NCBI GenBank assembly: GCA_963556695.1
Contig: CAUWAG010000016.1
Span: forward strand, 62,001 to 126,000
Source: Anthostomella pinea
Lineage: Eukaryota > Ascomycota > Sordariomycetes > Xylariales > Xylariaceae
Length of the DNA stretch: 64,000 nt
Direction: 5' to 3'
Shown piece by piece: positions 10,069 to 29,235 of this stretch; position 1 is the first letter of the stretch; each line of letters opens with the position of its first letter. Below the pieces are notes generated by a model. It made no database searches. It saw only the letters and a list, made by a program, of their open reading frames with translations, and was not told where the DNA came from. The translations under genes were made by a program, and so were the position numbers.

Positions 10069-10899
10069 TCAGACTGATTGTTTCGTGTTCTTGGACTTTG
10101 CCCATATCTCCAGCTGCATCTTGATGAACCCCAGCATCTTCTCAAGCCCTGCCCCATCGAAGTTGGTTAGGGCTCGGAAAATCTGTCTAGCGTCACACGA
10201 GGCGCAGTACATGCGAAAGACGTCCGCACGTAGAGCGCTGACGTCGCCGGAAAGGTGAAGCATGCCCTCGATACCAATGCCCCTCTTCATGTCTATAAGC
10301 CGGTTTCGTACTTCATTTCTAGAGTCCCTGACAGCCTTGAATGCAGTGTGGACTTCGGCCAAGAGGGACTTCCAGAAGGCGTTGTTGGGCTGGTAAACGT
10401 GTCCGTAATCACTGATATATTTCTTCAAGGTCTTTAGATCAAGTCGGATGATGCCGAGGACGCGATTGATGAAGCGGATCTCGTCCTCGACCAGTGCAAT
10501 GATACCCTCGCACCAGGAGGGGCGTTTCGGTGCCGGCTCTTCTTGCTTCTCGTCCTGGGCTTAGGCGCCTGGCATCGGATTCGAACTTTCGTTCTGATCT
10601 TGCCCCCAAGTATCGCCCGACTCGGCCTTCCTCTTGTTACTGTTGCTGCTTCTGGCCTCCGTCTGCCGCTGTATGTGCACGGTGTGGAACTTTCCTCGTA
10701 GTACCGGATCTCGCAAGACCTCCCATGCCTATTGGATCTTCGCGAAATACTTGTTGTTCTCAGGCGTGTCGCCCTTCTTGTCCGGATGATATTTCAAGGA
10801 AAGCGCTCTGTATGCTGTCTTGATGTCCGCCGCGCTGGCGCTGCTCTCGACCCGCAGTATGGCGTACAGGTCAAATTCAAAGCTCTTAGGATGAGCCAT
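10069..10899 (-). pseudogene. J-domain (DnaJ/Hsp40) protein with two premature stops
   Basis: A single frame of 276 codons begins MAHPKSFEFDLYAILRVESS and carries a full J-domain: helix II, then the diagnostic HPD in ALSLKYHPDKKG, then helix III NNKYFAKIQ. Codon 57 is TAG where the J-domain expects Gln in QQAWEVLRDP (10729-10731), and codon 113 is TAA (10561-10563). Everything else is open and protein-like up to the stop at 10069. Both lesions are explained by CAG-to-TAG and CAA-to-TAA, that is C-to-T at CpA, the RIP preference. The C-terminal half (FINRVLGIIRLDLKTL, then FWKSLLAEVHTAF) is helical and unassigned. The protein would be a soluble Hsp70 co-chaperone if intact. Confidence 0.85.
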
Positions 10900-11189
10900 C
10901 GTGCCTGAATGTGTGGAGAGAAGATGAAAATTAGGGAGCTGGACAGCTTGTTGTGGGGTATGTCGGGTGTTCTTTCGAAGCAATTGATGCGGCTGGAAGG
11001 AGGAGATCTGGGTTGTCGTGGGTGACGCTGGGAAGGGAAGAGAGGATTGTCTGCGCTTCCTAGAAAGGTTTCGCTGGAGCCATTGTCATTGAGGTTGAGG
11101 GAGAAGACAAATAGAGTTCAGCCATGAGCCACCAACAAAAAACTCGTCAATTTGCTCAATGTTGGGGCAGAGCCTGAATTGATCCCAAC

Positions 11190-11760
11190 ATCGATACCAT
11201 CTCTCAATCTGCTGGGTTGGGACACGAAGTCATCGCGGCCATTTCGTCCCTCGCCGGTATGGTCGGCAACCGAGGTCAAGCCGCCTCCTACGCGGCCGCG
11301 GACCGCTTCCTTACGCCCTCGTTCAGCACCGCATCTCGCTCGGCCTGCCCGCCTCCTCACTGGACCTGACGGCCATCTCCAACACCGGGTACCTGGCCGA
11401 GGACCTCGGCAAGACGGCCGAAGTGGCGCGAAGCCTCGGAAGCGACACGATCTGCAAGGCCGAAGTGCTTGCGCTCCTGGGCGCCGCCATCGGCGGGCGC
11501 ATGGCCACGACGTGCAACAGCCACATCGTCATAGGCATGCGAACTAAGCCGACGATGCAGCCACGAAGGCGACCTCATACAATGCGGCGCTCAAGGCGAC
11601 AAAGTCCCACAACCGGAGGCCAAGCAGTTGTGTGCGACGGCCTCGTGTGCAAGCTTGCGGCGTTTGATGATGAGCTCGAGGACCTCGACGTGACGCGCTC
11701 GCTGTCGCACTACCCGCTCGACTCGCTGGTCGCGATTGAGATCCGCAATTTCAATAGATC
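11190..11760 (+). pseudogene. Highly reducing polyketide synthase fragment (KR end plus ACP)
   Basis: The fragment starts with the KR-domain signature ISSLAGMVGNRGQA (about 11245) and AADRF. After a one-base shift near 11310 it continues QHRISLGLPASSLDLTAIS and VARSLGSDTICKAEVLALLG. It then reaches an acyl-carrier segment, VCDGLVCKLAAF...DVTRSLSHYPLDSLVAIEIR, with the DSL phosphopantetheine serine. The KR-ACP linker is shortened compared with intact synthases, and nothing upstream encodes KS, AT, DH or ER. This is the 3' stub of a type I PKS left by deletion or transposition. Its GC content is higher than its flanks. Confidence 0.78.
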
Positions 11761-12066
11761 GTATACATTCCTTGTTGAATCTTCGCCTTCGTTGCCCGGA
11801 TGGCGGTCAAATGCGTTCTTATGATGCTCCCGGATGCCGGTTTCGATCTTTACGACGCGTTTCTGACAAGAAACTATACTCAGACCTCCATAGACGTATA
11901 AGCTGCTTATCAGCGATCAACCGTCTTTATAACCGTGTATGTCGTAAAACAGTATAATGTCTGTACCCACACCTCTTATCAATCGCGAGCACAACATTCA
12001 AGCTGACCATGGCGATACCAAAGAACGGCTCTCCGCTTCCACTGGTCTGACTGAGTGATGGATTAG

Positions 12067-12073
12067 TGAGTCA
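12067..12073. promoter_or_regulatory. GCN4/CPC1-type site TGAGTCA
   Basis: Perfect TGA(C/G)TCA match 80 bp upstream of the permease ATG, next to related partial matches (CTGACTGAGTGA at about 12048 and AGTGACTGATTC). In ascomycetes this site binds the bZIP activator of general amino-acid control. Confidence 0.55.
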
Positions 12074-12152
12074 GTGACTGATTCCTGATGGAGATACGCA
12101 GATTGGCCCGTACTCCTCACATTCCTCGCTTCCTGTCCTCACCGCCATCACG

Positions 12153-13957
12153 ATGAATGGCAGCCAATCCGAGGCGGAATCACGCGATAATGCTTCCGCA
12201 CACGAGGCGCTGTTACCGCCGGATAGAGAAGCATCGCAGTACGGGACGCTCGAAAACGCTCAAGATCATGTCCTGAGTCATTCACTCGTGAATGGCGACA
12301 TTGTCACCGATACCGAGGATCACAGCCTAAAGCGCGGACTCGGCCAGCGTCATCTGTCAATGCTAGGCATCGCTGGTGCGATTGGAACCGGTCTCTTCCT
12401 GGGCCTTGGCGGTGCTGTGCAGAAGGGAGGTCCATTGGGCGCCCTACTCGGGTATGCGACAATCGGGCTGGTTGTGTGCGCCGTCCAGTTCGCTCTCGGC
12501 GAGGTCTCGGCCCTGCTCCCCGTGACAGGCAGCTTCGTACGCCATGCTGAGTTTCTGGTCGACCCGGCTCTGGGCTTTGCCGTCGGGTGGAATCTGGTCT
12601 ATGGCAACATTCTTGCAATCCCGTCCGAAATCACAGCCATATGCGTCCTCTTCCAATTCTGGACCGACCTGAACCCGACCGTTTTCATTCTCATCTCCAT
12701 CGTGTTGACGGTGACCGTCGGCGTCGCCTTTGTCCGTGTCTTTGGAGAAGTCGAGTTCATCTTTGCGTTACTAAAGATCTTTCTCGTCTTCTTTTTGATC
12801 ATTCTGGGGCTCATGATCGACCTGGGTGGTGTTCCGGGCACTCCACGCATTGGGTTTGCGTACTGGCGCAATCCGGGACCCTTCGTGGAGAACATTGCTA
12901 CCGGTGACTGGGGGCGGTTTCTAGGCTACTGGAGCGTCATGACCAGCGCCGTCTTCTCTTTTGCAGGTGTTGAGTCCCTTGCAATGGCTGCCGCCGAGAC
13001 TCATAATCCTCAACAAGCCATACCAGCCGCGTGCAAACGCGTGTTCATCCGCATCGTCATTTTCTACATGTTGGCGATATTGGTCGTGGGCATGCTAGTA
13101 GCGAGCAACGACCCACGACTCAATGATTCGTCGGGATCAGCTGCGCAGAGTCCCTTCGTTATCGCGGCCTCTGCTGCCGGAATCCCGGTTATCCCAACTA
13201 TTGTCAATGCCGTTGTGATAACGTCAGCATGGTCTGCATCCAACCAAAGCTTGCTTGCCGGCACTCGCGTGCTGTACGGCCTAGCGCTGAAGGGGCAAGC
13301 TCCCAAGATCTTCCTTCGAACAACATCGTGGGGCACACCGTATATGTGTGTGCTTCTCTTTGCAGCCTTTATGTTTCTCAGCTTCATGAGCCTGTCCAAT
13401 GAAGCACTCACTGTGTTCTGGTGGCTGGTGAGACTTACAGCTGCGGGCGTATTGGTATCGTGGTCCGTCATCTTGTTGAACCATGTACGACTGAGGCTGG
13501 CAATGAAGGAGCAAGGGATATCAGAAGCCCGGCTTCCATGGCATAACTGGTGGACATGTAAGTTGGAGAGACATCTGCTATCCAAACCTCCTCACTAATC
13601 CCTCATCGCAGTGTACAGCTCGTACGCCGGACTCTTCATGTGCATAGTCATACTGCTTACTGGAGGTTTCGAAGTCTTCACCGAAGGAAACTGGGATTCC
13701 AGAACATTCGTATCATCGTACCTGTAAGTTCACAGTACAACCAGACCACACCAAGCCCCGAGCGCTGACGAAGGCACAGAGACATCCCTCTCGTGCTCGC
13801 TGCCTACTTCACGTGGAAGTTTGTCAAGAAGACCAAGGTTACAACACTGTCTAGCATACCTCTCGACGAGGCGTTTGAACAAGCTGATCAGCTTTTGGAC
13901 ACCCCAAGCAACAAAGCTCAAGGCTGGACACGGGTTGTCAGCTGGGTATGGGAATGA
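12153..13957 (+). CDS. Amino-acid permease (APC superfamily, YAT type)
   Basis: Three exons: 12153-13557, 13612-13723 and 13780-13957 (introns 54 and 56 nt), 564 aa. After a polar N-terminus of about 65 residues comes the family motif KRGLGQRHLSMLGIAGAIGT and GLFLGLGGAVQKGGPLGALL (TM1), then 12 predicted hydrophobic segments. Internal landmarks are FSFAGVESLAMAAAETHNPQ in TM6 and SAWSASNQSLLAGTRVLYGL in TM8. The C-terminal tail is cytosolic (LSSIPLDEAFEQADQLLDTP). It should import amino acids across the plasma membrane by proton symport; the substrate is not predictable. No lesion, although neighbours on both sides are broken. Confidence 0.93.
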
Positions 13958-15698
13958 AAGACTGGTACATGAGCTACACTGTTTTTTATTCTCATTCAAA
14001 CATATGGACGGGTCGCTTAGGTGGAAACGCTCGCCGTGGAACGACCGGTCTGCCGATAAGGGGTGGTGGCACGCCGACCATGTGAGTCGTCAACGAGGTG
14101 ACCGTCCCGAAACACCAACATTATGCCCTGCAGGGGTTTCATGGAGGTCGTCCACGCGAGTTGAATTGCGGCCACGCCGCGAATGCCAGCATGGTTTTCC
14201 GCAGTGCTCCTGAGCGGAGTGTGTTGACGTGGACTCCATCCGCCTCCTAGAATCAGTCAGCAATACTGATTACAAACCCGAGGACGCCGTCAGCTTTGTA
14301 CAATATCGTCGGACTAGCGCTAATCATGCAAAACACTGCCGCTGCCCAGAGGGTGTTTCTCAAGTACAGCGACTTCCGTCGCAATAGAGGTCACACTTGA
14401 TCTCCTCGGTGCGACCGTGACAACTGGCGGGCTCTGCTGTTGGATGGAGCTTGAGCGCAGTGACGTGCAGCTCCTCAATAGCTTCGTATTGCGGACTCTG
14501 TCTGAGCACGTCAGCGTCACCTCGTCCGCTTATTGCTTTCAGTCCTGACATCTGAGCCCCATACCATCCCAGTGGCAGTTGTCATTGAACACCCCTGGGG
14601 CTCGAACGCATACACCATCATATGAAGTTCTTAAGTCTCGCTGATGATGTACGATCTGATTCATTCCCATTTTGAACAATATGACCAATCTTGTTCGTCG
14701 TTATGCCGCCGGCTTTGAGTCTGATTGTCACTGGAACAGGAGAATTAGTCTGTCGGTCAGTCATTGCAGGACTTTCCACCTGGCAGCAATCACATCATAG
14801 CTAGGCAGTCCCGGATATAGTCTCATGCAAACACTGGGTTCAGACGTGTGCTCAAAATTCCTGACGTACCCATATTGGGTTCGAGGGTCCTCATTGCCCA
14901 AGGGAAATTGTAACTCCTCAGACTGTGTTGAACGGGCAATATCCCAAATATACGATATCAGCAGTACGCCAGCCTGGTTTCGATACTTTACACGCTGGAC
15001 TCTACCTTTTTCTAGTGGCCTAGCATCGCTTCATGACACACGGTACTTGATACCCCGCGGTAGACGTTTCACTTGTCACAAAAATGCCTTGAAATCAGTT
15101 GTGGATATCTATTGCTTGACATACATGTTTGCTTGACGTGTGATCCGGAATGGTAAGCAACGCAAAAGAATAATGCAGGTTGCATGTTGCGCGAGAAACT
15201 GTACATAAGGGCACGTCCTCTCCGAGCCAAGTGGTCCGATGAACATGGAAGCAAATCATTTGAAGTCTGCAGTTTCAACGTAGTATTTATACTTGGCACC
15301 CCGTCCTATATTTTACGGCATCCTAATAGGGAGTGCTTCCCTCTTCATCACATTTGTTCAAACTATGGCGAAGTTCAACGAATTTGCAGATAGTCACAAA
15401 GGGCCATGCATATCAGCCCTTGCAATGCGTGTGCCGCATGAAGTTTCTGTGAGGGGATAACTCATGTCACTTACGCCAATAAGCAGTAACGTCTATTGTT
15501 GTTGACCGTCGAAAATTTGGCTGCTTTGCCTAAAGCATATGGATGCCTGGTTGCCTGGGTGAAATTTACACATATGCAAAAGATTGCCCATCCTTGACCG
15601 CCCAAAAAACTGTTGAGTAAGTCTCCACCTATCCATCGCCAATACTGCCTTCTCTCCACAGTTCTCCCTCCCCACCACCAACACACGAAACTCCGGCA
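13958..15698. other. Intergenic, no gene seen
   Basis: Moderately AT-rich with short frames on both strands only. No domain motifs, no terminal repeats, no tRNA-like boxes. Confidence 0.45.
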
Positions 15699-16345
15699 AT
15701 GAATATCTACGGGTATCTCAACCGAGCCGACCCGGCTTGGCAGGCGTTTTAATCCTACAGTCCGACGCGTGGTGACCCGGTGGATTTTTTGAAAGAAATC
15801 GGATACGGGGGCGCAGAAGGCTTCCCGTTGCCGGCCATCGCCACGTCGGCGCACGACATTAAGGCGAGACTCGCGCTCCTCGGGAGCAACATCCTTGCAG
15901 CTTTCAGGGATATGCAATCACTACACAGGAACTATAATGACGTGATGAAGGTTGTGTGGAAGGAACGCCTTGGGTACACAGAGAGGAAAACGAGATTGAG
16001 CGAACTTCTGGGCGACAGAGTGCCTCAGCGCCACCACCCCACTTTCATTTTTTACTCGCGCACCTGGAAGCGATTTCTGCCACAGGGATAAGTCTCAAGG
16101 GAAAGGTGTACAAGTACTACAACTCGACAAGAACTCTTCTAGGACACCCCAAATCAATGTGGAGGACTTGGCTGGTTTGCCAACATGTATGGAGTTGTTC
16201 TTCAATGCGCAGGGCTCCTATAATCCATCCGATTTCTGAAGGAAGGACCTCGACGGCGCTCACACAGGAAGACAACTGAGAGTCATACAAGTACCTTTCT
16301 TCCATAGACATGGGGTCTATTTCAGGCTGGGACCGATGAATACCC
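15699..16345 (+). pseudogene. Truncated duplicate of the downstream large uncharacterised gene
   Basis: Begins MNIYGYLNRADPAWQAF and then a TAA, and aligns along its length with the gene starting at 17248 (MDVYNWLNRPDPAWSAYYNF). Matching blocks are GFPLPAIATSAHDI against GFPLPVIATSPSDL, GISLKGKVYK against GITLKGVNIK, and RKDLDGAHTGRQLRV against RRDLESAHMGRQLRV. The frame changes at least once (around 16040) and there are at least two in-frame stops. One stop replaces a Trp (TGG to TGA) just before RKDL. Only the first 230 or so codons remain. This is a tandem duplication followed by decay. Confidence 0.75.
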
Positions 16346-17247
16346 AAAACTCGTGCCGCTCACGGTGATGCTATGGACCTCTGTAGGTCGCTCACCATGC
16401 CAAAACCTACGTGGCATGTATAGTGTAACTTTAACGTAGCACGGGCTAATATATTACAGCGGATGTGCTGTCTCAGATACATAACAGTCAATGCCCACTC
16501 ATTGGTCATAATCGTCACTCACAGAACGAGATCTGGCAGAAAGTCGAACTGTTGGTCCGCCAGGCGAACAAGGTACTCCATTTTCGTATCTCACTAATTG
16601 CTATAAACTCAGAGAACCTCAGACACTCAGACACAATTGCAGGTAAGCACGAAGTTTTTGGCACGGGTTCAGAGCATTTTAAACAAAGACTAAATTTGCA
16701 TAAAGGCTTAGCATGCATAATACTGCCGCCCAAGCTGTTGGACATTGGTCCCAATATTGGGAGCGGATTGAGCGTGTGCGTTGCTGTTGATTGAGGGGAG
16801 GCTTGTTACCCAGGTTGAATAGTCAGCGCAGTGTGTAGTGGTCTCCGCTTGATTTTTTCACCTCCATCTTCCATTTCACTCACCGCGGTTGGCCACTTTT
16901 CTCGCCCCTGGCAACCGTACAGCTTTCCCTGCGAAATCTTTGCAGCCTCCAACCTTCCCTTCCATCTTCGCTTTGCCTGAGACACGTCTGCAGTACTAGT
17001 TGTGATCACATCCGAGTGACACGCACAGAATTTTGCAGTCACGATTTCTCTGACCAGCAGTCTGCCGACCAACGCCAGAGACTTTCACACAACTTTGACC
17101 TTCACATAGGTACCAAGAAACAACAGCGGGGGGACATTCGATCGGTAAGAAAATGGCACCCTCTCACTGGATCGATGTACTGATACTGCATCCCAGACTC
17201 TGGAATAGACCTTCGTCCCATGTCAGTCGCAAACACCTGAGGCCGCG
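16346..17247. other. Spacer between the tandem copies
   Basis: No gene supported; this is the upstream region of the 17248 gene. The remainder of the truncated upstream copy is not recognisable here. Confidence 0.4.
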
Positions 17248-19823
17248 ATGGATGTCTACAACTGGCTCAACCGACCTGATCCGGCGTGGAGCGCATATTA
17301 CAATTTCAATCCCACTCGGGATGATGCCCGATCATACCTACAGTCGCTTGGCTACGGCATAAGCGGCGGCTTTCCTTTACCAGTGATCGCGACATCGCCG
17401 AGCGATCTCGATGCGAGAATCTCCTTCCTTGGGCATGGAATCTTAGCTGCGTACGAGGAGATGAAAAAAATGCATGGTCATCACCACGGCGGCTTCAAGA
17501 TATACTGGGCAAATATGGGAGTCAAACAGCGAGCAGCGATGTTGGCTGAAGCTTGGGGAGGACCGTTACCTCTGCGTCATCGTCCAGACCTACACGAACT
17601 TCTCACTCAGTTGAATGGCATCACTTTAAAAGGCGTCAACATCAAGCCTAAAGGTTTCGATCACTTGCTATCCAACAAGCAGGCGTTTAGGGCACCGTTC
17701 CTCAACGCTGAAGACTTGAGCAACGTACCCGTTTCTATGCTGCTCTTATTCGGATCACTTAGTTCCCACCATCCAGTCGAGTTTTGGAGACGGGATCTCG
17801 AAAGCGCCCATATGGGGCGACAGCTGCGGGTCATACTGGGACCATTCCTACCAAGACATGTCGTGACATTCCAGTCCGGAGAGGAAAGCTACGCCCAGCT
17901 CGTGGCCTTAACCAGTGATGCTGCAGATAAGAACTATGCTCTGCTACTCCGCCATCGAGCGGTCACACCCGGCGAGGCCGTGATTGTGTTAGAAAGTCAG
18001 CACCAACTGTACCAGTTTCTGGCGAAATGGGCAGCGAAGATTGTGGAGAAGGTGGATACAGTTACTATCCCACGAGAAGTAAACGAACCAGCCATTCTAT
18101 CATCAGAAACGACAAAAATGAAATCTTCTGCTTTCATTTCTCTGGAGAGTGCATACGGCATTCCCAAAGATCTCAATCTCGACCAAATCGTGGACATATC
18201 GGACGGAATGTGTTACTTGGGCGCGGAAGAGTTGAAGCAGGCTCGCCAGGAGCCGTCTTTCTTCAAAGACCACGTCGTAGATGAGCTTGAGAGCCACTAG
18301 GGGTGGATCTCCGACGACCGTGGTAAAAAGGAAGCATACCTTCTAGCAAGCCCGCAGGGCGCGGCTTATAACGGACTGTGGGAACAGTCTATCAGGGGCA
18401 CAATTTCTACGATGTTGGAGTCGATTCAGATCTGGAAATGTACTACCTGCATGTTGGAGGATCTCCGTAAACAGCATGAGGTTCACAAAGGAGGACTGAA
18501 TCTCGAAGACGACCTCCCCAAACCATTGGAAGATGCAACGGCACACGGAGTTTTTTTCCTGAAGACAACCATAAGATCACTCGTCGAAGGCCTGGACGGT
18601 GGGGGGCGAGTTTTCTCTGCCCCTGGGCTTCGTGATTTATTCATCCGACACCCGCAGTCCGGGAGTCCCTCGACCTTCTCTATTCGCCCGCAGGGAAAGA
18701 AAGACGGCGGAAGAGACGGAATCAATACTATGCTTTCGCTTCTACTAAGCCAATCCTCGGTCGCACAAGTAGGATTAAAGCCCTTACTCGACACCCTCAA
18801 TATCGTCGCTGATGCAAGCGATGGCCATGCTAACATGCTTGGAGAGCATGTAATCAGACAACTAGCTCCCATCGCGATAATGGTAGATATTCTCGATCGG
18901 CTCGAGAACTTCCACCCATGGGCTGGCAAATTTGTCATTGATCTGAGCGATTTATACATCCGCAAGCCATTGGAGGTACGCTATAAGGCCGAGCTAGAAA
19001 GTTCCCTTCGGCCTGTGCGAAGATTATGCAAAGGAAAGACGAAGCTGCCGCAATTTACCATGCTCGCAGGCAGGCCATTTATAAACAAGTTTGACTATCC
19101 GCTAGATGCCAAGAGCACTGTTAAAATATCAAGAGAATGCACCAAGCAGAAGCCAACCTCGGCGAATTCTGGGACCTAGTACTAAAAGACTTACGAGCTG
19201 CTAGATGTTTAAATGAACACCTCGAAGAAATCATTAGAAATCAGGTAATAGAACGAAAGAAGGAAATACTTGACAACGAAAATATACCGCCGAGCTTGAA
19301 AGTATCGGTCGACCGCGCAGGACCTGCCCTAGATCTCGTCTTCTCATTTACCGGACTGAGCATTAAGCTCAACCGAAGGGTCAAAAGTAAACAAGAGGAG
19401 AAATACCCCAAGGAAAAGACTCGCGAGGTCCTAGATCCGGACCGGCAAGAAGATCTTGCCGCTCCCGATGAGGGCGACGGAGAGGTAATTGTCGCGAAAG
19501 AGTTTAAGCTCTCTTGTCGAGGGCTCATAATGGTAAATTTCCTCTTAAACGAGACCGAATCGGGCCATGTAGGAGAGGCGAAGTGGACAGACTTTCTAAA
19601 CTTGATCGCAGAGATGGGCTGCACAGGGGAGAAGCTGCTGGGCTCAGCGTGGCGCTTCACACGAGCGGAAGGCTCGCTCTTAGAGGGCCGGGGGTCTCTG
19701 AACTTGCACGCGCCGCATGGCAGAAAGTCAGGCTCCAAATTAACACGCCAATACGCCAAACACCAGGCGTATATGATGAAGACGCGGTTGTTGTTGTCGT
19801 TGTTGTTGTTGTTGTCGTTGTAG
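17248..19823 (+). pseudogene. Large uncharacterised fungal protein ('ipa protein'-like), broken
   Basis: One long coding region of about 860 codons interrupted twice. Codon 351 is TAG (18298-18300), after DHVVDELESH, and the same frame continues without damage for another 290 codons. A one-base shift near 19120-19135 moves the rest (HQAEANLGEFWDLVLKDLRA) to another frame ending at 19823. The C-terminal block (KWTDFLNLIAEMGCTGEKLL, then GSAWRFT and LNLHAPHGRKSG) resembles the conserved C-terminus of large fungal proteins of unknown function that are often auto-named ipa protein; that match is from memory. No membrane segment, signal peptide or catalytic motif is visible. The end runs into a (GTT)n tract. 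The TAG fits C-to-T at CpA. Confidence 0.75.
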
Positions 19824-21273
19824 CATTTAACGCCGGGGGGACTGCCGCGTAGCGGCGTCAACCAGGGGCTCCAAGAGGCCGCTCAGGCGTGCTAGGCTAG
19901 GTCTTCTATGTACATACACTGCCCATCTAGCAGGTCAAGTCCGTAAACAGCCACCACACTTAAGCAGCGGATCACACCGTGTCCCCCCTCCTCCGGGTGA
20001 GGGGAAGTATCGGCTGGGGTCCCAAATGTTCAGTTTTCAGGGCGCAACGCCAGGTTCAGTGCTCTTAGAGCTTACAGTAGGTGCCGCGGCATGCCGCAGT
20101 GGTTCTTACGCGCCCCGTGAGACGTAATGAAGACGCGGTGGGGCCTCGACAGGTGCCAATTCGTGCTGAAATCCGCATAGTAACTGCGCTTTCTTTACCT
20201 CGGACTCAGCGTGTCGAGAAGGGACTGGGATATATGGGGATGGGATTGGTGGGGAGAGTCTTCCCCCGCCGTCCTTGAACCTGATGTTTGGAAGGAAGAC
20301 ATCGCTTTCTTCACCTGGGATACAACCAGGCTTATGCGTCGAGATGGGATTGGGATATATGGGGATGGGATTGGTGGGGAGAGTCTTCCCCTGCCATCCC
20401 TAACCCACTATCAAAATCATTGCATAAACGCGAACGGCTTCTTGTGTTCGTCACATCATTCGCGGTTTGCCCTGGAAGATGAATATGGCGAATGCAATCA
20501 GTTGGCATAGGGAGAGTCTTCCCCTATCGCTCCGGAACACCGCCACCTAATTGATAAGTGTTGGACTAAATTACTCTGCTTGATGTGGTTTATAAGAGAC
20601 GAAGAGAATATATGTATACGGAGACTTTCGGGTCGAGAAAATCTTGACGAAAAGTGACGCAAACAAGATCGGGCTGCTATTGTTCGGTTTTCAAATCTTG
20701 TTTCAACCTCTGGCGGGATCGAACCGCTCACGTTGATGAAGAAGGCTGGAAGATAGTTCTGGGATTTGTAGATGAAACCTGAGTTCCTGGCTTGGACCGA
20801 TGATCAGGACCGGGGCAAAGGAGACTTGGTCGCGAAATAGCTGTGGATGCCTAGCTGGGATACTGCCGGTGTTCTGAAGTGAGCGGTCAATGAAACTACG
20901 CAACTACGCAACCACGCGACCACCATCTGTATGTGGTGTCTTTAGGGTAGGTAGTTGACCAGGAATCCAGAACGAGATCCAAGTTGCTGTCCATTCCGAC
21001 TCGACTAAAGACTCCAGTATCCCAGCCATACAGGAGGGTCTGGAACCCGCAGTGACAGAAGCAAGTGGAAATTGCGCTGGGTGAGTGTCTTGTACATGCA
21101 AAATTAACCCCACCATACCGATCACTCCCATCACCCGAGGGCGCGGAAACGTCTCTGACTCGTGCTCAAGAGTCTCCCCATATGCTGTCTTTTCATCGCC
21201 AAGGAGACGTGAATGGAGGAGTTTCTTGATGACCTCACCGACATCCGGAGAGCACCCAGGACACACTCTGATG
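19824..21273. other. Intergenic with repeats, no gene
   Basis: Nothing coding is supported. It holds the tandem duplication listed at 20186-20408. A third short copy of its end (GGGAGAGTCTTCCCC) lies at about 20510. Confidence 0.45.
20186..20408. repeat. Two tandem copies of a unit of about 120 bp
   Basis: Units starting at about 20186 and 20303 both run from GCTTTCTT.ACCT to the near-palindrome GGGGAGAGTCTTCCCC. They share the phrase GGGATATATGGGGATGGGAT. A partial third end lies at 20508-20522. Origin unknown. Confidence 0.7.
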
Positions 21274-22083
21274 TTAGATGTACAGCCAAGCGGCTCCGAT
21301 AGCGAACAACCCGAGTACCCAAGGCCCGGCGACTTTGGTGGTATTGATCAAGAACGTCATATGCCTCGACTGTGCTTCCGATGCTTGAGCGACCCGGTCA
21401 TTCTCCCTTGGAAAGTTCCTGTCCGGCACGTCCACACCTAGGAAAGCACATAGGGGCTCCCACCCAGAGCCCATCTTGTACTCGAGCCTCCGTTCCGGCG
21501 GTACCAGTTCGCGTATATCTCGAAAGTAGGCATCGTATGCCTTTCGTGCGCAGACCTCATCGATCCCAAGCCTAGTCTTAGCGTTGAAGAACCCGAAGAG
21601 TAGCTTCTTCGTAGCCTGCACTGGACGTATTCCAAGAAACCGGGACGTGATGAAAGCTTGGATGCTGGATACGGGCTCCTTCATGACCGTGTCCCGGATT
21701 GCCGATCTAAAGCTGGGCCACCAAGAGTCGAAGTCCAGCTGCAAAACCACGACTTTGGCGTCCGGATACGCCTTGATCAACTCCAATGCAAAAGGTGAGG
21801 CGAGATCCGTCACCGCATCGTACTGGCCCCAAAGGGCATCCTAGTCGGCGCGTGTGTGCGGCGGCCTCGGTGTTGCGCCAGGTACGGACGGCCAGGTAGC
21901 TTCGGCCCCTTGTTCTATCAGCGTCCATGGGCTGTCCATTACGCTCTCGAGCAGGCCGTGATGTATCTTGTAACCCAGGAGTTGATAGGCCTGCGCCATG
22001 GACTTTGTACCCATGCGGAAGAGAGACGCGTTGATGATCTTGAGGCCATCGCGGTCACGCGCGGCAGGTGTTGCTGCCGCCAT
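21274..22083 (-). pseudogene. Sulfotransferase-like P-loop protein with one premature stop
   Basis: A frame of 269 codons resembles the fungal Sulfotransfer_4 group, often misnamed NAD-dependent epimerase. The N-terminal PAPS-type loop is INASLFRMGTKSMAQAYQLL. It then reads TRAD-stop-DALWGQYDAVTDLAS, where homologues have TRADWDALWG, followed by FALELIKAYPDAKVVVLQLD. It ends with a C-terminal membrane anchor (TTKVAGPWVLGLFAIGAAWL). The only lesion is TAG at codon 81 (21841-21843). TGG-to-TAG is G-to-A on the coding strand, C-to-T at CpA on the other strand, again RIP-like. If translated it would be a tail-anchored transferase. Confidence 0.85.
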
Positions 22084-22519
22084 GGGGAGGATTTTCGCTT
22101 CGATATCTGTATCTTGAGTGAACGCGAAATGTGATGCTGTGCCGTCAAAGCTTCTTCGTGACTGTGGTGCACGCAGTTATCACCAAGCTGGCTAATTCGA
22201 AATCGAGTGAGGCAGACTTTCGAAGAGGCAAGGGGCAGGGGGCAGGGGGCAGGGAGCAGACTGGCAGACTGGCTGACTCAGCAGAGAAAAGGGGGACTGG
22301 GTCAGCTGGCAGACTTGGACAGCAGCTGGCACCGTCTGTCAAGTACATCCCGCCGGCGGTCGGTGGGTCGCAACCTCAACCTCACCCTCAATCCACTTCC
22401 CACGTACCACATCCCACTTCATGGGCTGCGACAAGTTGAGGTAACATCTGTTCGCGGTTCGCCGGCAATCCACACCTCCACCCCTACATCGCGTCGGATA
22501 ATCTCCTGTCAGGTCTACC

Positions 22520-24276
22520 ATGTCCGCCCACTTCTACAACAACCCGCCGTCGACGAGCTATATCCCGCCGCCGACGTACCCCTTCAGCGATGCGGCCAGT
22601 TTCGCGCATCACGGTCACCAATATACACAAGGCGGCCAATTCAACACGGCGTCGCCCGGACTAGCTGTGTCGAATGGCGCTGTCGTCCGCACGCGAACCC
22701 AACCTCAACCGCAGCCGGCCGCAGCCTCGCAATCGACGCCCCCTCCCCCCCGCACAACCGGCCAGAAGGATGCGCTCAGTCAAGCCGCCCTCGAAGCGCG
22801 ACTAGCCGCTACGGCGGCAGATGGCAGTGGCAATGCCAAAACCTGGAACTATCCTCATACGCGGGGCTCGAATGTCGTCGACTTCCGGGCGGAGATCGAG
22901 GAAAGAACGAAGAATGGGGAGAGCTGCGATCAAATCGCTGCCGCCCTGATCGCGAAGGGTGTACACACCAGCTCCAAGACGATTAGTCGACAGAGAATCC
23001 TAATGGGCTTACGGAAGAGGGTACGTGGCGTATAATCAGGCTATCATCTTGCTTGGCAAGACACTGATCTCGTGATGAACCACAGGCTGTTCGAAAGGAG
23101 AATCCAAATCGGAAAGCCCCCTACGAGAGAAAGCATGGGCCTCGGAAGGTACAGCCGAAGGTGGTTGCCCAGAAAGAAAGGCAGAGCCAAATAACACAGA
23201 TGACGGAACAGGGTCTCTCAGCCGAGGAAATTGCCAGTATAATGATATCCCGTGGTATGCCACTGGTGAAGGGGGCCTCGACTATCCGCCGCCTTCAATC
23301 GAGTTGGAAGCTGCGTATGGACCCTCACCGTGTCAAAAGAAACGCCCGCCATATGGCCCGGAAGAGGGCGAGACTGGAGCAGAGAGCTGAGTTCGAACGC
23401 TACGCGGCGGAATTGGGGCTCCAAGACTCGGCTGGATGGGTGGCACAGAAAATGTCAGAGCCAGCTGTGCAGCAACTTAGAAAGGACCGTTCACATGTGT
23501 TGATGGGTGAACATGCCCCGAAAAGTGGCGATAGGAAAAATGCCGCCGTGGCGCGTCCCGGCAACCCCCGTGGTTCTGGCAACAAGCAACATCCCAACAA
23601 GTCGACGACCGACGCCGGGCTCGCTACCGCCCACCAGGACTCTGATTTCGACGGCGATTCGAGCGATGAATCATCGGACGATGGCTCACACGCCCAGATT
23701 CAGCGACCAACAAGGAGCAGACCTAGTGGAGGTGCCAGGCCTTCGGAGAACTACAACACGGTCAAGCACCCCGGGGACCCCTCCGACGACAGTGAGAGCG
23801 TGGACTCGGAGTATGAACCGCACCAAAATCTGCCTACAGCAACTCCTAGGTTCGAACCCATGCCTGCCATCTCACCTGTAGGTGGAGGTGACTATCAAGA
23901 TGATTCCGATTACGGCCCCATGATGCAGGACAACGATTATGATGATGATGACGATGCCGAACAGATGGGTGACATAAACTCACCTCAGGACAATACCCAG
24001 GCGCCACCACCAACACAACAACAGCCTCCCGCGCCATCGGTTGCCTTTCCCGCGCCTGTCTTACCAGTCGAAGAAGCAAATGCGAACAAGGAGACTATCG
24101 GCTCTATCAACAGTCAAATTGCCGCAGCCCAGTCATTGAAAGACTTACTGGAGGCCCGGATGAACGGCACGCCCATGAGAGGTAATCTCACCGGCTTGCC
24201 GCCCTCGTTGGCAGACATTGCGGCCGCTCGCAAAGAAGCGAAAACAGCCACCGAAGCCATATTGGCGATGTTGTGA
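22520..24276 (+). CDS. Conserved-looking nuclear/regulatory protein with two HTH-like segments
   Basis: Exons 22520-23020 and 23086-24276 (65-nt intron), 563 aa. The N-terminus is Pro/Gln-rich and disordered. Residues about 118-167 (DFRAEIEERTKNGESCDQIA, then LIAKGVHTSSKTISRQRILM) and about 195-240 (QITQMTEQGLSAEEIASIMI, then SRGMPLVKGASTIRRLQSSW) are two similar helix-turn-helix-like repeats split by the intron. A basic stretch (RVKRNARHMARKRARLEQRA) could be a nuclear localisation signal. After that come acidic Ser/Asp-rich and Pro-rich tracts and a short C-terminal helix. I infer DNA or chromatin binding; no named family recognised. Confidence 0.8.
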
Positions 24277-25410
24277 TACCCCTTTGCAATGATGAAAGCG
24301 AACCACGGCAGCAATACCTTTAATATCCGTACTTGTAGTACAATAGGCAACAGGCGGGTTTCAAGGGTGAGGCTTCCTGAGCTCGGTGTAGAGCTATTGT
24401 ATGATACCCCTTTATCACTTTCATAGTTCAACTATGCGATACAGCTATGTACGTAGGTTCTAGTGAATCCAGTCGCACACGGCCTTTTTACACTGTGGGT
24501 GTTTCATGATGCGATGGTGTTGGTCATCTGGGAGTATGATGGCCAAATTCGGCAGATTCTTCCCGTGTCGTCCTCAACTCTCCGTCCAGACACAGCGTGG
24601 ACGTCCTCGCACATTTCTTGCTTGACAAGATTTAGCCGGTATTCCAGCCCATGATGGTGCCATGGCCGCAAACTTGCCCGCCGTTGCATATTTCAGTCTT
24701 CCTCTCAAACTCGGCAGTTGATTGCACGCAGCAAGCCCCAGCTTGTATGGTGGTGGCGGTGGCAATAGCACAGACGAGGGCGTCCGCTCGAGGGTTTTTC
24801 CATTCTCTTAGTTCACGCTCCGCTTCAACGTCCCCGTCTTGGAAGCACAAGCGGGTTTCGCTCGGCCTCCGCAGCTTCGACGAGCACCGAGTCGTGGTTA
24901 ATCCGTTGGCTTCCTAGGCACCGTTCTTTTTTTATTTTTTTCCTCTCGCTTCCGCTCTGGTTTTGTCCCCCACTTTCCGAAGCAAAGTGAAAAGCGCTCG
25001 CGGTGGGTCCCTCCCTTGAGCCAACTGGTATGTGAGACAAGGTTTATCAAGCTGGAGATAGGCGATAGTAGCATGAACGCAACCTAGACCTCTGTCGTAG
25101 ACGGTGATGACGTGGTCTGCGGCATGGTGCCGACTCCATTACGGAGGACGGAGCGGGGTTTTTGACGTGACGCGCTCGGGTTTAGACAGGATTAACGCCA
25201 TTACCCCTTACCGCCATCTTCCATCTTCCCTTCTTCAACGTCCATCCTCCCTAAGAATCACCTAGACTGTCTATATAAAGGCAGTTACTTCGCAATCAGA
25301 GAGGAGAGAAGAGAGAGCAGACGCGACCAGCTGCATCTTTGAATCGTGAAGACACTGAATGGTCCGCACATCTTCTGCGCCCCTTAGCTACCTATGTAGT
25401 TGTGGAGATC
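24277..25410. other. Intergenic; possible remnant of a Cys-rich frame on the minus strand
   Basis: On the minus strand (24630-24790) one frame reads ALVCAIATATTIQAGACCVQ then AEFERKTEICNGGQVCGHG, like a signal peptide plus cysteine-rich mature start. It meets a TAA and lacks a convincing ATG. I do not call a gene. The last 150 bases are the promoter of the aldo/keto reductase. Confidence 0.3.
25272..25279 (+). promoter_or_regulatory. TATA box (TATATAAA) of the aldo/keto reductase gene
   Basis: Perfect TATATAAA 132 bp upstream of ATG 25411, followed by a purine-rich GAGAGGAGAGAAGAGAGAGC leader. This is one of the few clear TATA boxes in the window and suggests an inducible promoter. Confidence 0.6.
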
Positions 25411-26553
25411 ATGGCTTCAAAGTACCCTCAGCGCAAGATTGGCGACGATTCCGTCAGTGCCCTCGGCCTCGGTTGCATGGGAATGAGCTTCGGTTATACC
25501 TCCTTCGGCGGATTCGATAATGAAGAGTCATTCAAGGTTCTCACCACAGCGGCCGATATGGGCATCACCTTCTGGGACACCTCCGACCTCTACGGGCCCT
25601 TCACGTACGTCGCTTCGCTTGCTGGACTCATATTAATAACCTGATGCTGACCTAGTGCAGCAACGAGCAATTGATTGGAAAATGGTTCCAGGAGACGGGC
25701 CGCAGAGACGACATCTTCCTCGCCACCAAGTTCGCCAACAGGTTCGTCGACGGCAAGATGGTAGTATGCGGAGACCCGGAATACGTGAAGCAAGCCTGCC
25801 AGGCGAGCTTGGAACGCCTACAGACAGACCGCATCGACCTGTACTACCAGCATCGCGTAGACCCTAAAGTTCCGATCGAGCACACCGTCCAGGCCATGGC
25901 GGAGCTCAAGAAGGAGGGCAAGATCCGCTATCTGGGTCTATCGGAGTGCTCCGCCCGCAGTCTGCGGCGGGCGCACAAGGTCCACCCCATCGCCGCCGCG
26001 CAGATGGAGTACTCGCCCTTCGCGCTGGAGATCGAGTCCGACCAGACCCAGTTGCTGAAGACTGCCCGAGAGCTTGGCGTGAAGCTGGTGGCGTATTCTC
26101 CGCTTGGCCGCGGCTTCCTGACCGGCTCGATCAAGAGCCGGGATGACTTTGATGAGAAGGATGGTCGAAGAAACCATCCTCGCTTCTCCGAGGAGAACTT
26201 CAAGGACAATTTGCACCTCACAAATCTCATCGCGTCCATCGCGAAGCACAAGGGCGTTACTCCGGGCCAGCTCACTATAGCTTGGGTCCTAGCGCAGGGC
26301 GATGGTGAGTCGCCACGATCTTTTTCAACTCCCGTTGCGCTGACTAATCATCGCAATAGATATCATCCCTATTCCAGGCACGAAACATGTCAAGTATCTC
26401 GAGGAGAACGCCAAGGCTGCCACAGTCAAGCTCTCCGACGAGGAAGAAGCCAAGATAAGGAAGGCCATTGAGAGCGTGGGCGGCTCGAGAGGGGCTCGAT
26501 ACCCCGAGGCAATGATGGGCGCGTTATTTGGGGACAGCACTGAACTGAAGTGA
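25411..26553 (+). CDS. Aldo/keto reductase
   Basis: NADPH-dependent reductase of carbonyl compounds, AKR fold, 343 aa, cytosolic. Exons 25411-25604, 25661-26304 and 26360-26553 with consistent phases. The catalytic tetrad is visible: Asp56 and Tyr61 in FWDTSDLYG, Lys88 in FLATKFA, His129 in LYYQHRVDP. The loop YSPLGRGFLTG and the cofactor region IIPIPGTKHVKYLEENAKAA match AKR13/YakC-like enzymes. An ATG 72 nt upstream is in the same frame, but I prefer 25411 because the encoded stretch before it is not conserved-looking. Intact. Confidence 0.93.
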
Positions 26554-27539
26554 ATGAGAAGCTGGGGATCAGGGGCTAGGTACTGAGGAAACTGTCTCCA
26601 TGCGTTTTCAATATCGGTTACACGTGGTTCCTGATCCTGGTCGGTCCTGTGTACGACTAAGAGCGATCAACCAAATCAGTTGTTACTAGGCCATTAGAAA
26701 ATACATATATACAGTGCCCGATTGCCAACATGATAGTATGGGAGCCATTGGTACCTCTGATGACCTTTGGAAGGGGCACTTGTATACGTGGGACAGCAGT
26801 AGAAGGGAAATAGCGCATGCGGTGGACCATGAACAGAGCATGTACTCGACGCTGTAGCTGGTCTTCGAATGAAAGAAATGATCCCATAGGCTTCCAGACT
26901 TGTAGTATTGTGACTGAATTTGACCACGCAATCAGCAGCATGTCAGAATATTATATTTCATGGTGAACACAGTTGTGCTGGCCGGGACTCTATCTTCAGA
27001 AAGATCACGAGTTACGATGAGCTGCCTATAAGGTAGTCTGGACAGCCATGAATGTATTGGAAACCAGAGACAGTGGTATGGGGTGGATGATGGTTTCATG
27101 GTTGTATAGATCAGCCCATATGTCTAGGGCTGTCATCTAGTACTAAATATACACTTTGGACACAAGGTCGGGCCTATCCTCTGATCTGCTGGATGAAGCT
27201 CCTTTCACTTCCCTGCAACCAAAGCTTCCTCTCAGTCCCCTTCACACTCTTCACCTGCTGCCAGCTATAGTCCACACCTGACAGGCACCTTGGTTCTCAC
27301 AAATTAGTTGTGGAAATCAGGGGGCAAGACATGTGGTGGTTTAGAAAATGGGATGATGATTGGTCAGTGTCTCATCTATGGTTCCGCGCGGGATTCCCAT
27401 CTAAGTACATGTATAGGAGCCCCTTAATCCCCGGCTACCTAACACCTGACAACGGATCTGCCAGGCAACACCCCGAATGCTGTCCCTTTCAGCTGCAGCC
27501 ACCTGTAGACACACCTAACAGGCACCAATATTCCTTACA
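26554..27539. other. Intergenic, AT-richer
   Basis: No gene. Two diverged copies of a block of about 60 bp containing ACACCT(G/A)ACAGGCACC lie at about 27245-27305 and 27480-27545. The second overlaps the 3' end of the F-box-like pseudogene. Confidence 0.4.
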
Positions 27540-28877
27540 TCAGTTGATGTAGTCGTCATGGTCAATGCCGGTCTTACGCCCCCAACCACCGCGCGAGAAC
27601 TGTCGTTGCTCGACAAGTTGGTCAGCAAGGACCTCTTGCAGCTCGGCGGTGGTTGGAAGCCGCCCTCCGGCCTGCCACTCGAGCTTGTCCCGTCCCCAAA
27701 ATACGAACGCCCAATTCGTCATCACCGGCTCACAGTGGAAGCAGCTGTACGCGCCCCGAGCGAGCATCGGGATCTCCTCTTCCTCAAAGCCCTGAGAAAG
27801 CGTATGGAGCCATGAGTCCTGAGGATCGGTATCGCCATCCTCGTGGAAGGTGTCAAGGATTTCTGTGACATCAAGGCTGACAATTCCATCGATGTTGCGT
27901 AGGTAGAGACCGTCAGATTCGGTGTGCCAGGTCGTCCTTCTGCAGTCGCCAGTCTGTTGCTGTTTGAAAAGAGTGATCGCACGCTAAGTCGATTGCTCGA
28001 CACTGGGCCGAGCCTCGAAGCTGTATAGGTCGACCAGGCCACGATTGATGACAAACTTCGTCAGGGTCTCTGTATCTATGTAATACATGTGCTCGTTCTC
28101 GTCATCATTGACGACTATTTTAGAATTAGCATGCCATACGAGCTAAGTGACAGGAATCCTTTGCTTACCATCTTCAACATGGCCGACCAAGAAAGTCTGC
28201 AGACATCGGACTTGCTGAAGCTCCCTAGGAGCGAATTGCACCCAAAAGTGCCCGAACACCCCCTGGACTGGAGAGTCCCAAGAACGATAGGTATCTATGG
28301 GGAACATGTGGCAAACAAGTTGCAGTATATACAGCGCCTTGCTGAATCGGTGGATCTCCTGGACGGATGGAGAGGAGAGCTTCTTGGGTGCCCTTGAAGA
28401 CCAATGCCGGGTAGTTCTGGGCTCCTTGGTCAAAGCGCGCTCGGAGAGGCAGTTTGCGTAGAGGGAGACGGCTGCCTGAGTTCTGAGGAGCTGGCCGGCG
28501 GACTTGAACGTGGGCTCAAATGATGCCGCATTGGTCACCATTCCTCCGGGGGTGATGCAGTGGCGAACGAGCGCGTCAAGATGAGACACAACTCCCTCGG
28601 TTGCCGTGACCGGCTCGCCCTTCTCGTTTCGAGTGAGTTTGGCGGTGGCAGCCGCGACATGATGATGAGCGACAGCGATGGGAAGTAGCTCAGGGCCGAT
28701 GGCCGTGTTGATCAATCCGCGGACGATGCCCTCCTGGTTGCTCACAACGAGTTCGAAGAAGGTGGGACCAGTGAGAGCAAGACGGACGACAACATCTGTG
28801 TGGCCGAGATGATTGATGACGAGCAACTTCAACTCATTGGGGAGAAGTTCCAGACCAGATCGGCGGTCTGCGTTCAT
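27540..28877 (-). pseudogene. F-box-like protein, paralogue 1, one premature stop
   Basis: Exons 28169-28877 and 27540-28114 (54-nt intron). N-terminus MNADRRSGLELLPNELKLLV followed by LALTGPTFFELV has the F-box-like Leu-Pro-x-Glu start. Codon 280 of 427 is TAG (27984-27986), and the same frame is clean before and after it. After it the frame reads TWHTESDGLYLRNIDGIVSL, FHCEPVMTNWAFVFWGRDKL and the end GRKTGIDHDDYIN. The exon junction, phase and length match the paralogue at 34051-35375, which has no stop at this place. CAG-to-TAG (C-to-T at CpA) explains it. F-box proteins select substrates for SCF ubiquitin ligases; here the role is only inferred from the N-terminus. Confidence 0.8.
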
Positions 28878-29037
28878 TCTGCCACATGAGTCAAGTCAGA
28901 TATGATTTAGCGGGCTACTGGGGGGAAGCGGGATTCTTGATGGATCTCAGACTTACCTCATGAAAGCAGAGTGGACCGCCATGGGAGAAGTGATAGTCGT
29001 AGACATGATGGAATATGACGACTGGGTCAAGATACGT

Positions 29038-29235
29038 GTCGAGTCGAATCTGGTATGTGCAGAAGACGACGACGGGTTCAGGATATGGGTCGAGTCGAAT
29101 CTGGTATGTGCAGAAGACGACGACGGGTTCAGGATATGGGTCGAGTCGAATCTGGTATGTGCAGAAGACGACAGGATCAGGATATGGGTGTCGAGTCGAG
29201 TCTGGTATGTGCAGAAGATGACCGTGGGGTTGAGG
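29038..29235. repeat. Minisatellite, about 4 copies of a 51-bp unit
   Basis: Copies start at 29038, 29089, 29140 and about 29190, each with TCGAATCTGGTATGTGCAGA and GGTTCAGGATATGG. A fifth, degenerate copy lies at 29251-29288. The array sits 160-410 bp upstream of the F-box-like paralogue 1 start, so it is probably in its promoter or leader. Confidence 0.85.

What the first reader, a model, noticed from the sequence alone, without database searches (positions are those of the whole stretch)
10069..28877. A belt of otherwise intact genes with single RIP-like nonsense codons
J-protein (two stops), ipa-like protein (one stop plus one shift), sulfotransferase-like (one stop) and F-box-like paralogue 1 (one stop) are open apart from these codons. 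Every stop is explained by C-to-T at CpA on one strand (CAG/CAA to TAG/TAA, TGG to TAG). The pattern suggests mild RIP or RIP leakage, stop-codon readthrough, or editing, rather than random decay. In some Sordariomycetes (Fusarium, Neurospora) UAG codons in pseudogene-like loci are restored by A-to-I mRNA editing during sexual development. TAG codons here (codon 57 of the J-protein, 351, 81 and 280) would become UGG (Trp), and codon 81 of the sulfotransferase is exactly a conserved Trp.
Basis: partly seen in the sequence, partly recalled or inferred. Interest (0 to 1): 0.8.

Follow-up and report, generated by a model that had tools for sequence, protein, structure and literature searches.

The report
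Broken fungal genes, one shared stop
Four neighbouring genes of a pine-associated fungus carry early stop codons; most look like ordinary gene decay, but one stop sits at the same place in two distant sister genes, as if inherited and possibly corrected in the RNA.

Summary
The window is Anthostomella pinea (Xylariaceae), contig C12. "Otherwise intact" is only partly true: the ipa-like gene also has a -1 frameshift and a SINE-like insertion, the sulfotransferase departs at two further positions that are invariant in 119 homologues, and the J gene has two stops. No trace of RIP was found, and "C-to-T at CpA" is automatic for any transition to TAG or TAA. The public annotation hides the sulfotransferase and J stops in pseudo-introns (102, 99 and 27 nt).

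Editing UAG to Trp would restore a residue seen in homologues in two genes (sulfotransferase, ipa-like), not in J (Glu/Gln-type column) or F-box (Gln in its paralogue). The surprise is the ipa-like stop. Two paralogues only about 42-50% identical carry TAG and TAA at the same codon; two further copies have TGG. The frame beyond the stop shows the same codon-position pattern as before it, and the adenosine lies in a robust predicted hairpin loop. This suggests an inherited, once-tolerated UAG, a candidate premature-stop-correction editing site, in a family now decaying. Coincidence is not excluded (P = 0.008 to 0.07). No RNA data were available.

The parts
10072..10899 (-). J-domain gene with TAG (10731-10729) and TAA (10563-10561); public model Uu.00g132890 splices both out with pseudo-introns 10750-10652 (99 nt) and 10586-10560 (27 nt)
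   Evidence: (PF00226, E 2.4e-15)
10729..10731 (-). TAG, codon 57 of J gene; aligned column mostly Glu in database homologues, Glu/Gln/Ser/Arg/Lys/Thr in own-genome J domains, no Trp seen
10561..10563 (-). TAA, codon 113 of J gene, beyond the J domain; column not compared
15699..16332 (+). truncated second ipa-like relic (stops TAA at a Tyr column, TGA at a Trp column)
17248..19820 (+). ipa-like gene: N part 17248-18297, in-frame TAG, continues to about 19125, then -1 frame; its last codons before 19820 come from the inserted element
18298..18300 (+). TAG, codon 351; same codon is TAG in the C14 copy and TAA in the C5 copy, TGG in the C10 and C3 copies
18291..18309 (+). predicted hairpin whose loop holds the A of the UAG (min P(loop) 0.99 over flanks 10-30)
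19125..19143 (+). -1 frame change beside a short A run; the C5 copy keeps frame here
19789..20126 (-). SINE-like dispersed element with (CAA)n tail, flanked by 13-bp direct repeats (19776-19788, 20127-20139); replaces the ipa C-terminus
21277..22083 (-). sulfotransferase-like gene (PF17784); public model Uu.00g132920 removes a 102-nt pseudo-intron 21942-21841 that ends exactly on the TAG and spans a conserved block
21841..21843 (-). TAG, codon 81; Trp in 117 of 118 homologues with a residue there
27546..28877 (-). F-box-like paralogue 1, two exons, 54-nt intron 28168-28115
27984..27986 (-). TAG, codon 280; CAG (Gln) in paralogue 2
34051..35366 (+). F-box-like paralogue 2, no in-frame stop in the two matched stretches

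Best explanation
The 'belt' is four unrelated accessory genes, each losing function separately by ordinary mutation and insertion (no trace of RIP), interleaved with open genes. The ipa-like stop is different in origin. A Trp codon (TGG) became UAG once, in the common ancestor of the window, C14 and C5 copies. The reading frame beyond it went on being used while those copies diverged to about 42-50% amino-acid identity. The UAG must then have been bypassed; A-to-I editing of a UAG in a tRNA-like hairpin loop to UGG, as known in other Sordariomycetes, is the likeliest way. Today the five close copies all carry further lesions, so the window copy is probably a recent pseudogene with a fossil editing site. 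Shown: the shared stop column, the codon-position pattern on both sides, the hairpin prediction, the extra lesions. Inferred: single origin, bypass, editing.
For: Stop at the same codon in 3 of the 7 own-genome places that one search lists as covering it (of 9 rows): window TAG, C5 TAA, C14 TAG; TGG in C10 and C3; no stop in the two distant ones. With distant homologues as outgroup the trio is a clade, SH-aLRT 89.1, UFBoot 73. Codon-position differences window-C5: upstream .43/.30/.65, downstream .46/.34/.63; C14 similar: coding-type constraint on both sides. Strict hairpin-loop test: window and C14 pass and C5's TAA is at 0.99 in all four flanks, against 10 of 117 in-frame Trp codons mutated in silico. 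Window and C14 stems differ by one compensated pair at two synonymous sites (direct reading). No RIP trace. Ordinary lesions in the other genes.
Against: No RNA data. All five close ipa copies have other lesions, and C10 and C3 have TAG at other Trp columns (558, 378), so Trp-to-TAG arises repeatedly in this family; the chance that some three copies share a column is 0.07, for this trio 0.008. C5 has TAA, which single-site editing would turn into UGA. C10's TAG and the sulfotransferase, J and F-box TAGs fail the strict hairpin test. Counting homologous sites once, hairpin enrichment is only P = 0.049. Clade support is moderate, and the place of C5 within it is unsupported (37.6/52). Distant homologues do not have Trp at this column. 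No relative from another species could be examined (one search found none).
Confidence: 0.5

Rival explanations
1. All stops, the ipa one included, are independent nonsense mutations in dying genes; the shared ipa column is coincidence at a mutable TGG codon.
For: Every close ipa copy carries other lesions; Trp-to-stop changes also at columns 180, 378 and 558; any-trio coincidence P = 0.07; interrupted accessory-gene stretches are common here: 35 of 150 scored HET stretches hold stops, introns included.
Against: Specific trio P = 0.008, uniform-column null 0.00016; the trio is a clade with moderate support; constraint downstream of the stop equals that upstream; hairpin loop in all three.
Confidence: 0.38
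2. A-to-I editing in the sexual stage restores all four genes today.
For: Four of the five stops are TAG, one per gene; ipa and sulfotransferase sit on Trp columns; pseudo-introns in the annotation like those over edited UAGs (PMC4817773, PMC11169179 passages); Sordariomycete host with DUF726 (Ame1-family) genes.
Against: J57 and F-box columns are not Trp in the homologues compared; J has a second, TAA stop; sulfotransferase lost invariant R116 and A59; ipa has a frameshift and an insertion; three of the four sites fail the strict hairpin test.
Confidence: 0.05
3. RIP or RIP leakage from nearby repeats made the stops.
For: Four putative DNA methyltransferase loci exist; mariner-like remains at 30-34 kb; one 300-bp tile there (33500-33800) has an index just above zero, 0.03.
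Against: Composite index -0.36 to -0.83 in the genes; CpA not depleted in the 30 kb mariner relic (1.38) (the inserted element's index of 1.18 reflects its own short, repeat-rich sequence); the 40 listed DNA matches of 10.0-22.2 kb all fall in the 338-bp element (39 of 278 candidates scored); protein matches covering at least 70% of a query are at most 52% identical, shorter ones reach 61%; ipa copies also carry stops at Tyr and Lys columns that need transversions, and none clearly at Gln.
Confidence: 0.03
4. Intronisation: the TAG in the sulfotransferase created a 3' splice site and the annotated 102-nt intron (a multiple of 3) is real.
For: GT...TAG ends fit, in frame, and the public model uses it.
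Against: Removes a block conserved in homologues; no branch-site-like CTRAY near the 3' end (direct reading); the J model needs a 27-nt intron, too short to splice (recalled); the annotation section names no RNA-seq.
Confidence: 0.03
5. Some lesions are errors of a Nanopore-only assembly.
For: R10.4 reads only, Racon and Medaka polishing (PMC10763133); the ipa -1 shift lies by an A run.
Against: About 80x, Q20 chemistry; substitutions to TAG are not a typical error (recalled); the neighbouring permease and reductase frames are open.
Confidence: 0.03

Closest known systems
Premature-stop-correction (PSC) A-to-I editing sites of Fusarium and Neurospora (PUK1, AMD1, CHE1)
   Same: UAG at a codon that is Trp in sister copies, G at +1 and +3, predicted hairpin loop, apparent pseudogene, stop shared among homologues; annotation errors of the same sort seen at J and sulfotransferase
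   Different: no RNA evidence, conservation seen among paralogues of one genome only, and every close copy carries further lesions
Ordinary unitary or family pseudogenes of accessory fungal genes
   Same: stops, frameshift, insertion, loss of invariant residues, paralogues also broken
   Different: one stop column shared by three diverged copies with a constrained frame beyond it
RIP-mutated sequences
   Same: TAG/TAA stops
   Different: no CpA depletion or TpA excess in these genes; no duplicated template found
SINE retroelements
   Same: about 340 bp, dispersed, (CAA)n tail, 13-bp direct repeat at the window insertion
   Different: no Rfam family matched in the window; a flanking repeat was found by script in only 1 of the 8 other copies cut out (L031); family unnamed here

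Membership tests
PSC A-to-I editing site (ipa-like codon 351) | in-frame UAG (U at -1), purine at +1 and +3 | tested here: met
   TAG then GG in window and C14; preference from PMC11156358 section 5
PSC A-to-I editing site (ipa-like codon 351) | edited codon UGG restores a residue seen in homologues | tested here: met
   TGG in the C10 and C3 copies; not Trp in the distant homologues
PSC A-to-I editing site (ipa-like codon 351) | adenosine in a hairpin loop | tested here: met
   min P(loop) 0.99 window, 0.988 C14; control 10 of 117 Trp codons; 23 of 533 UA sites reach 0.98. Prediction only
PSC A-to-I editing site (ipa-like codon 351) | stop conserved in homologues | tested here: inconclusive
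   shared by 3 of 5 close copies in one genome; no orthologue from another species found
PSC A-to-I editing site (ipa-like codon 351) | rest of the frame intact | tested here: not met
   -1 shift and 3' insertion
PSC A-to-I editing site (ipa-like codon 351) | A-to-G in sexual-stage RNA | not testable with these tools
   no RNA-seq
PSC A-to-I editing site (J57, F-box 280) | edited codon restores a conserved Trp | tested here: not met
PSC A-to-I editing site (sulfotransferase 81) | restores a conserved Trp and a functional frame | tested here: inconclusive
   Trp 117 of 118, but R116 and A59 lost; hairpin minimum 0.06, 0.02 to 0.99 by flank
RIP product | CpA depletion and TpA excess | tested here: not met
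RIP product | duplicated template of high identity | tested here: inconclusive
   none found: DNA search of 10.0-22.2 kb, where element copies filled the 40 listed matches and 39 of 278 candidates were scored; protein searches. F-box not searched as DNA
Pseudogene | multiple independent lesions or loss of invariant residues | tested here: met
   ipa and J: two or more lesions; sulfotransferase: R116L, A59G. F-box: one lesion only

The most novel reading that the evidence does not exclude
An ipa-like gene family of Xylariales carries a long-conserved UAG at one Trp codon, kept through extensive protein divergence because the RNA is edited to UGG in the sexual stage; the A. pinea copies show such a site after the family began to decay, so lost editing-dependent genes can be recognised in DNA alone by a stop shared among diverged copies inside a conserved hairpin.
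Probability: 0.3. Interest if true: 0.6.

Novelty: new member of a known kind. Interest (0 to 1): 0.42.

Why it matters
A-to-I editing is called a common feature of Sordariomycetes (PMC11087585, passage), but the species named with data in PMC11156358 are Fusarium, Neurospora, Sordaria and Pyronema, and term searches of PMC11156358, PMC11087585 and PMC11169179 for 'Xylari' gave 0. A Xylariales case would thus be expected rather than shocking, yet a shared-stop test that needs only a genome would let one find candidate sites in species without sexual-stage RNA. The case also shows that pseudo-introns in automated annotation can hide broken or recoded genes, and that a CpA argument built on TAG/TAA stops is circular.

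Tried and rejected
RIP: indices, duplicates and stop spectrum, no support. Hairpin test at one flank length: rejected as uninformative, because 74% of 171 UA adenosines look 'in loop' at +/-15; replaced by the minimum over four flanks. One search used wrong frames for two control genes and was redone. One search's own-genome J alignment mixed orientations and was redone by motif; loci in which the motif was not found gave no count, one reading (L066) is spurious, and the window's own J domain was counted apart.

ipa protein search returned nothing, so no other species was compared. PDB gave no ipa relative (two hits, E 0.39 and 0.73). Paper search for 'ipa protein' with Fusarium gave 0.

Kinase control for a PUK1-like site: one match with two TAG (C5:3209623) looked promising; the 141 bases read are an intact Kin1-like stretch (name recalled), so the TAGs lie elsewhere and nothing is claimed; kinase stops are confounded by introns. 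Kinase stretches without room for an intron hold TAG 6, TGA 2, TAA 2, against HET TAG 10, TGA 16, TAA 9 (P = 0.07). Ame1 orthologue among the DUF726 loci: not identified (three loci read). Telomere at the left contig end: no TTAGGG or CCCTAA in the first 1000 bases.
Full report
IDENTITY. The window is G000:C12:62001-126000 of a 53.7-Mb, 16-contig genome. The best relatives of the sulfotransferase-like and J genes are Anthostomella pinea proteins Uu.00g132920 and Uu.00g132890. These are exact translations of the window if short GT-AG introns are allowed. A. pinea is Xylariaceae, Sordariomycetes. The genome paper (PMC10763133; abstract, passages and section 22 read) reports Nanopore-only sequencing and ab initio plus homology annotation; section 22 names no RNA-seq. 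Contig C12 is 247.5 kb and its right end is rDNA.

THE STOPS. The public models of the sulfotransferase and J genes do not show them. The sulfotransferase model removes 102 nt (21942-21841) that end exactly on the TAG and contain a block conserved in homologues. The J model removes 99 nt and 27 nt; a 27-nt intron is too short to splice (recalled). The public models of the ipa-like and F-box genes were not seen. Liu et al. 2016 (PMC4817773, passages) found 69 Fusarium graminearum genes whose edited UAGs were hidden by such erroneous introns, and Zou et al. 2024 (PMC11169179, passages) the same for CHE1 in two species. The symptom fits editing and pseudogenes alike.

RIP. A transition from sense to TAG or TAA must pass through CAG, CAA or TGG, so CpA context carries no information. 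Composite indices are J -0.65, ipa -0.52, sulfotransferase -0.36, F-box -0.83; 2-kb tiles -0.73 to -0.23; open neighbours -0.70 to -0.75; window -0.52. One 300-bp stretch of mariner relic reaches 0.03. A DNA search of 10.0-22.2 kb listed 40 matches, all in a 338-bp element (39 of 278 candidates scored, so this is not proof of absence elsewhere). Protein matches that cover at least 70% of a query are at most 52% identical (shorter ones up to 61%), and the J C-terminal part found only itself. DNA methyltransferase-domain genes exist (four loci), so RIP capacity is not excluded, only its trace here.

WHICH RESIDUE STANDS AT EACH STOP. Sulfotransferase 81: Trp in 117 of 118 homologues (119 aligned, one gapped; the 120 listed of 466, minus A. 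pinea's own). Own-genome paralogues were checked only in part: of seven loci scanned by a motif two gave a reading, TGG in L017 and AGG in L022. The gene also lost R116 (119 of 119 Arg; also Arg in the two solved relatives displayed of 10 hits) and A59 (119 of 119); the codons now there, CTG and GGG, are not reached from Arg or Ala codons by C-to-T (direct reading). J57: Glu in 118 of 119 listed homologues, many named as bacterial; in own-genome J domains read by motif Glu 7, Gln 4, Ser 3, Arg 3, Lys 3, Thr 2, Cys 1, Ala 1. F-box 280: CAG in paralogue 2; the C4 copy L043 aligns Arg there. So editing to UGG would be restorative in two of four genes.

THE IPA-LIKE STOP. Five close ipa-like copies were found in the genome, the window's included, besides a truncated relic at 15.7 kb. 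At codon 351 the window has TAG, C14 has TAG, C5 has TAA, C10 and C3 have TGG. With three distant homologues as outgroup the maximum-likelihood tree puts window, C14 and C5 together against C10 and C3 (SH-aLRT 89.1, UFBoot 73). Between window and C5 the fraction of differing bases at codon positions 1, 2, 3 is .43/.30/.65 before the stop and .46/.34/.63 after it; C14 gives .41/.35/.64 and .37/.29/.63. The part beyond the stop was therefore under coding constraint in these lineages for most of their divergence. Either the stop is old and was bypassed, or it arose late more than once. Chance: if each of five copies drew one Trp column at random, any three would agree in 7% and this trio in 0.8% of draws; with stops placed uniformly, 0.016%. 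Against single origin, C3 and C10 show that Trp-to-TAG also happens elsewhere in the family (columns 378, 558). Among ipa stop columns reachable by Trp-to-TAG or Gln-to-TAG/TAA, three are Trp and none clearly Gln; with Trp's share of 0.31 that is 0.03 by my arithmetic, post hoc.

HAIRPIN. Fungal A-to-I editing prefers U at -1, A or G at +1 and +3, and hairpin loops (PMC11156358 section 5). A strict test (minimum loop probability of at least 0.98 over flanks 10, 15, 20, 30) passes for the window and C14 codon 351 and the C3 TAG at 378, and fails for C10, sulfotransferase, J and F-box: 3 of 5 Trp-column TAGs against 10 of 117 in-frame Trp codons mutated in silico, P = 0.0085; 2 of 4 counting homologous sites once, P = 0.049; 3 of all 7, P = 0.025. 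C5's TAA is also looped (0.99 at each flank). The window and C14 stems differ at two synonymous wobble sites that still pair (direct reading): one covarying pair, no more.

LESIONS BEYOND THE STOP. Window ipa has a -1 shift by an A run, where C5 keeps frame, and a SINE-like insertion with a 13-bp flanking repeat at its 3' end. C5 has TAA at a Tyr, a Lys and a mixed column, and two more stops in its C-terminal part. C14 has four stops before codon 310 in its matched frame and frame changes between matched pieces, some of which may be introns. C10 has two stops in aligned columns and more in an unaligned stretch. C3 lacks about 100 codons between adjacent matched pieces. The close family looks dead or dying in this strain. 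Whether the A-run shift is a Nanopore error cannot be told here.

CONTROLS. In HET-domain stretches of the same genome 35 of 150 scored (182 candidates) hold stops; in those without room for an intron the count is TGA 16, TAG 10, TAA 9. The belt's 4 TAG of 5 has P = 0.026 against that share, post hoc. Open genes lie between the broken ones: amino-acid permease and aldo-keto reductase.

MACHINERY. Ame1 belongs to DUF726 and its editing role arose in Sordariomycetes (PMC11087585 passages). At least four DUF726 loci are present; which is Ame1 was not settled. Tad2 and Tad3 were not looked for.

VERDICT. Ordinary decay is the best reading for three genes. The ipa stop is a real oddity that fits an inherited, formerly edited UAG better than chance, but not decisively.

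Noticed in passing
window 19789-20126: SINE-like element, about 338 bp, (CAA)n tail, 13-bp flanking repeat; 40 matches listed in the genome, the best 99% identical, so not RIP-mutated. The eight copies cut out were inspected only at their ends; a flanking repeat was found in one.
   Followed up: partly
window 15699-16332: second, truncated ipa-like relic beside the first, perhaps an old local duplicate.
   Followed up: partly
window 11183-11824: looks like a polyketide synthase relic (carrier-domain-like stretch, recognised by eye); no Pfam match.
   Followed up: no
window 30050-31250 and about 33500-33800: remains of Tc1/mariner-like transposase (recognised by eye) on opposite strands, lying between the two F-box-like paralogues; CpA not depleted.
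   Followed up: partly
window 29017-29222: 51-bp tandem repeat, 4.1 copies, upstream of F-box-like paralogue 1.
   Followed up: no
L048 (C12 right end): contig C12 ends in rDNA; the SSU match spans 603-2062 against 706 model positions, so an insertion or intron in the SSU gene is likely.
   Followed up: no
L042 (C3 ipa-like copy), position 1717: TAG at another conserved Trp (column 378), also in a robust hairpin loop; a second candidate site or chance.
   Followed up: partly
L090 (C16:798587-799654): DUF726 match with TGA and TAG in a short stretch, probably an intron.
   Followed up: no
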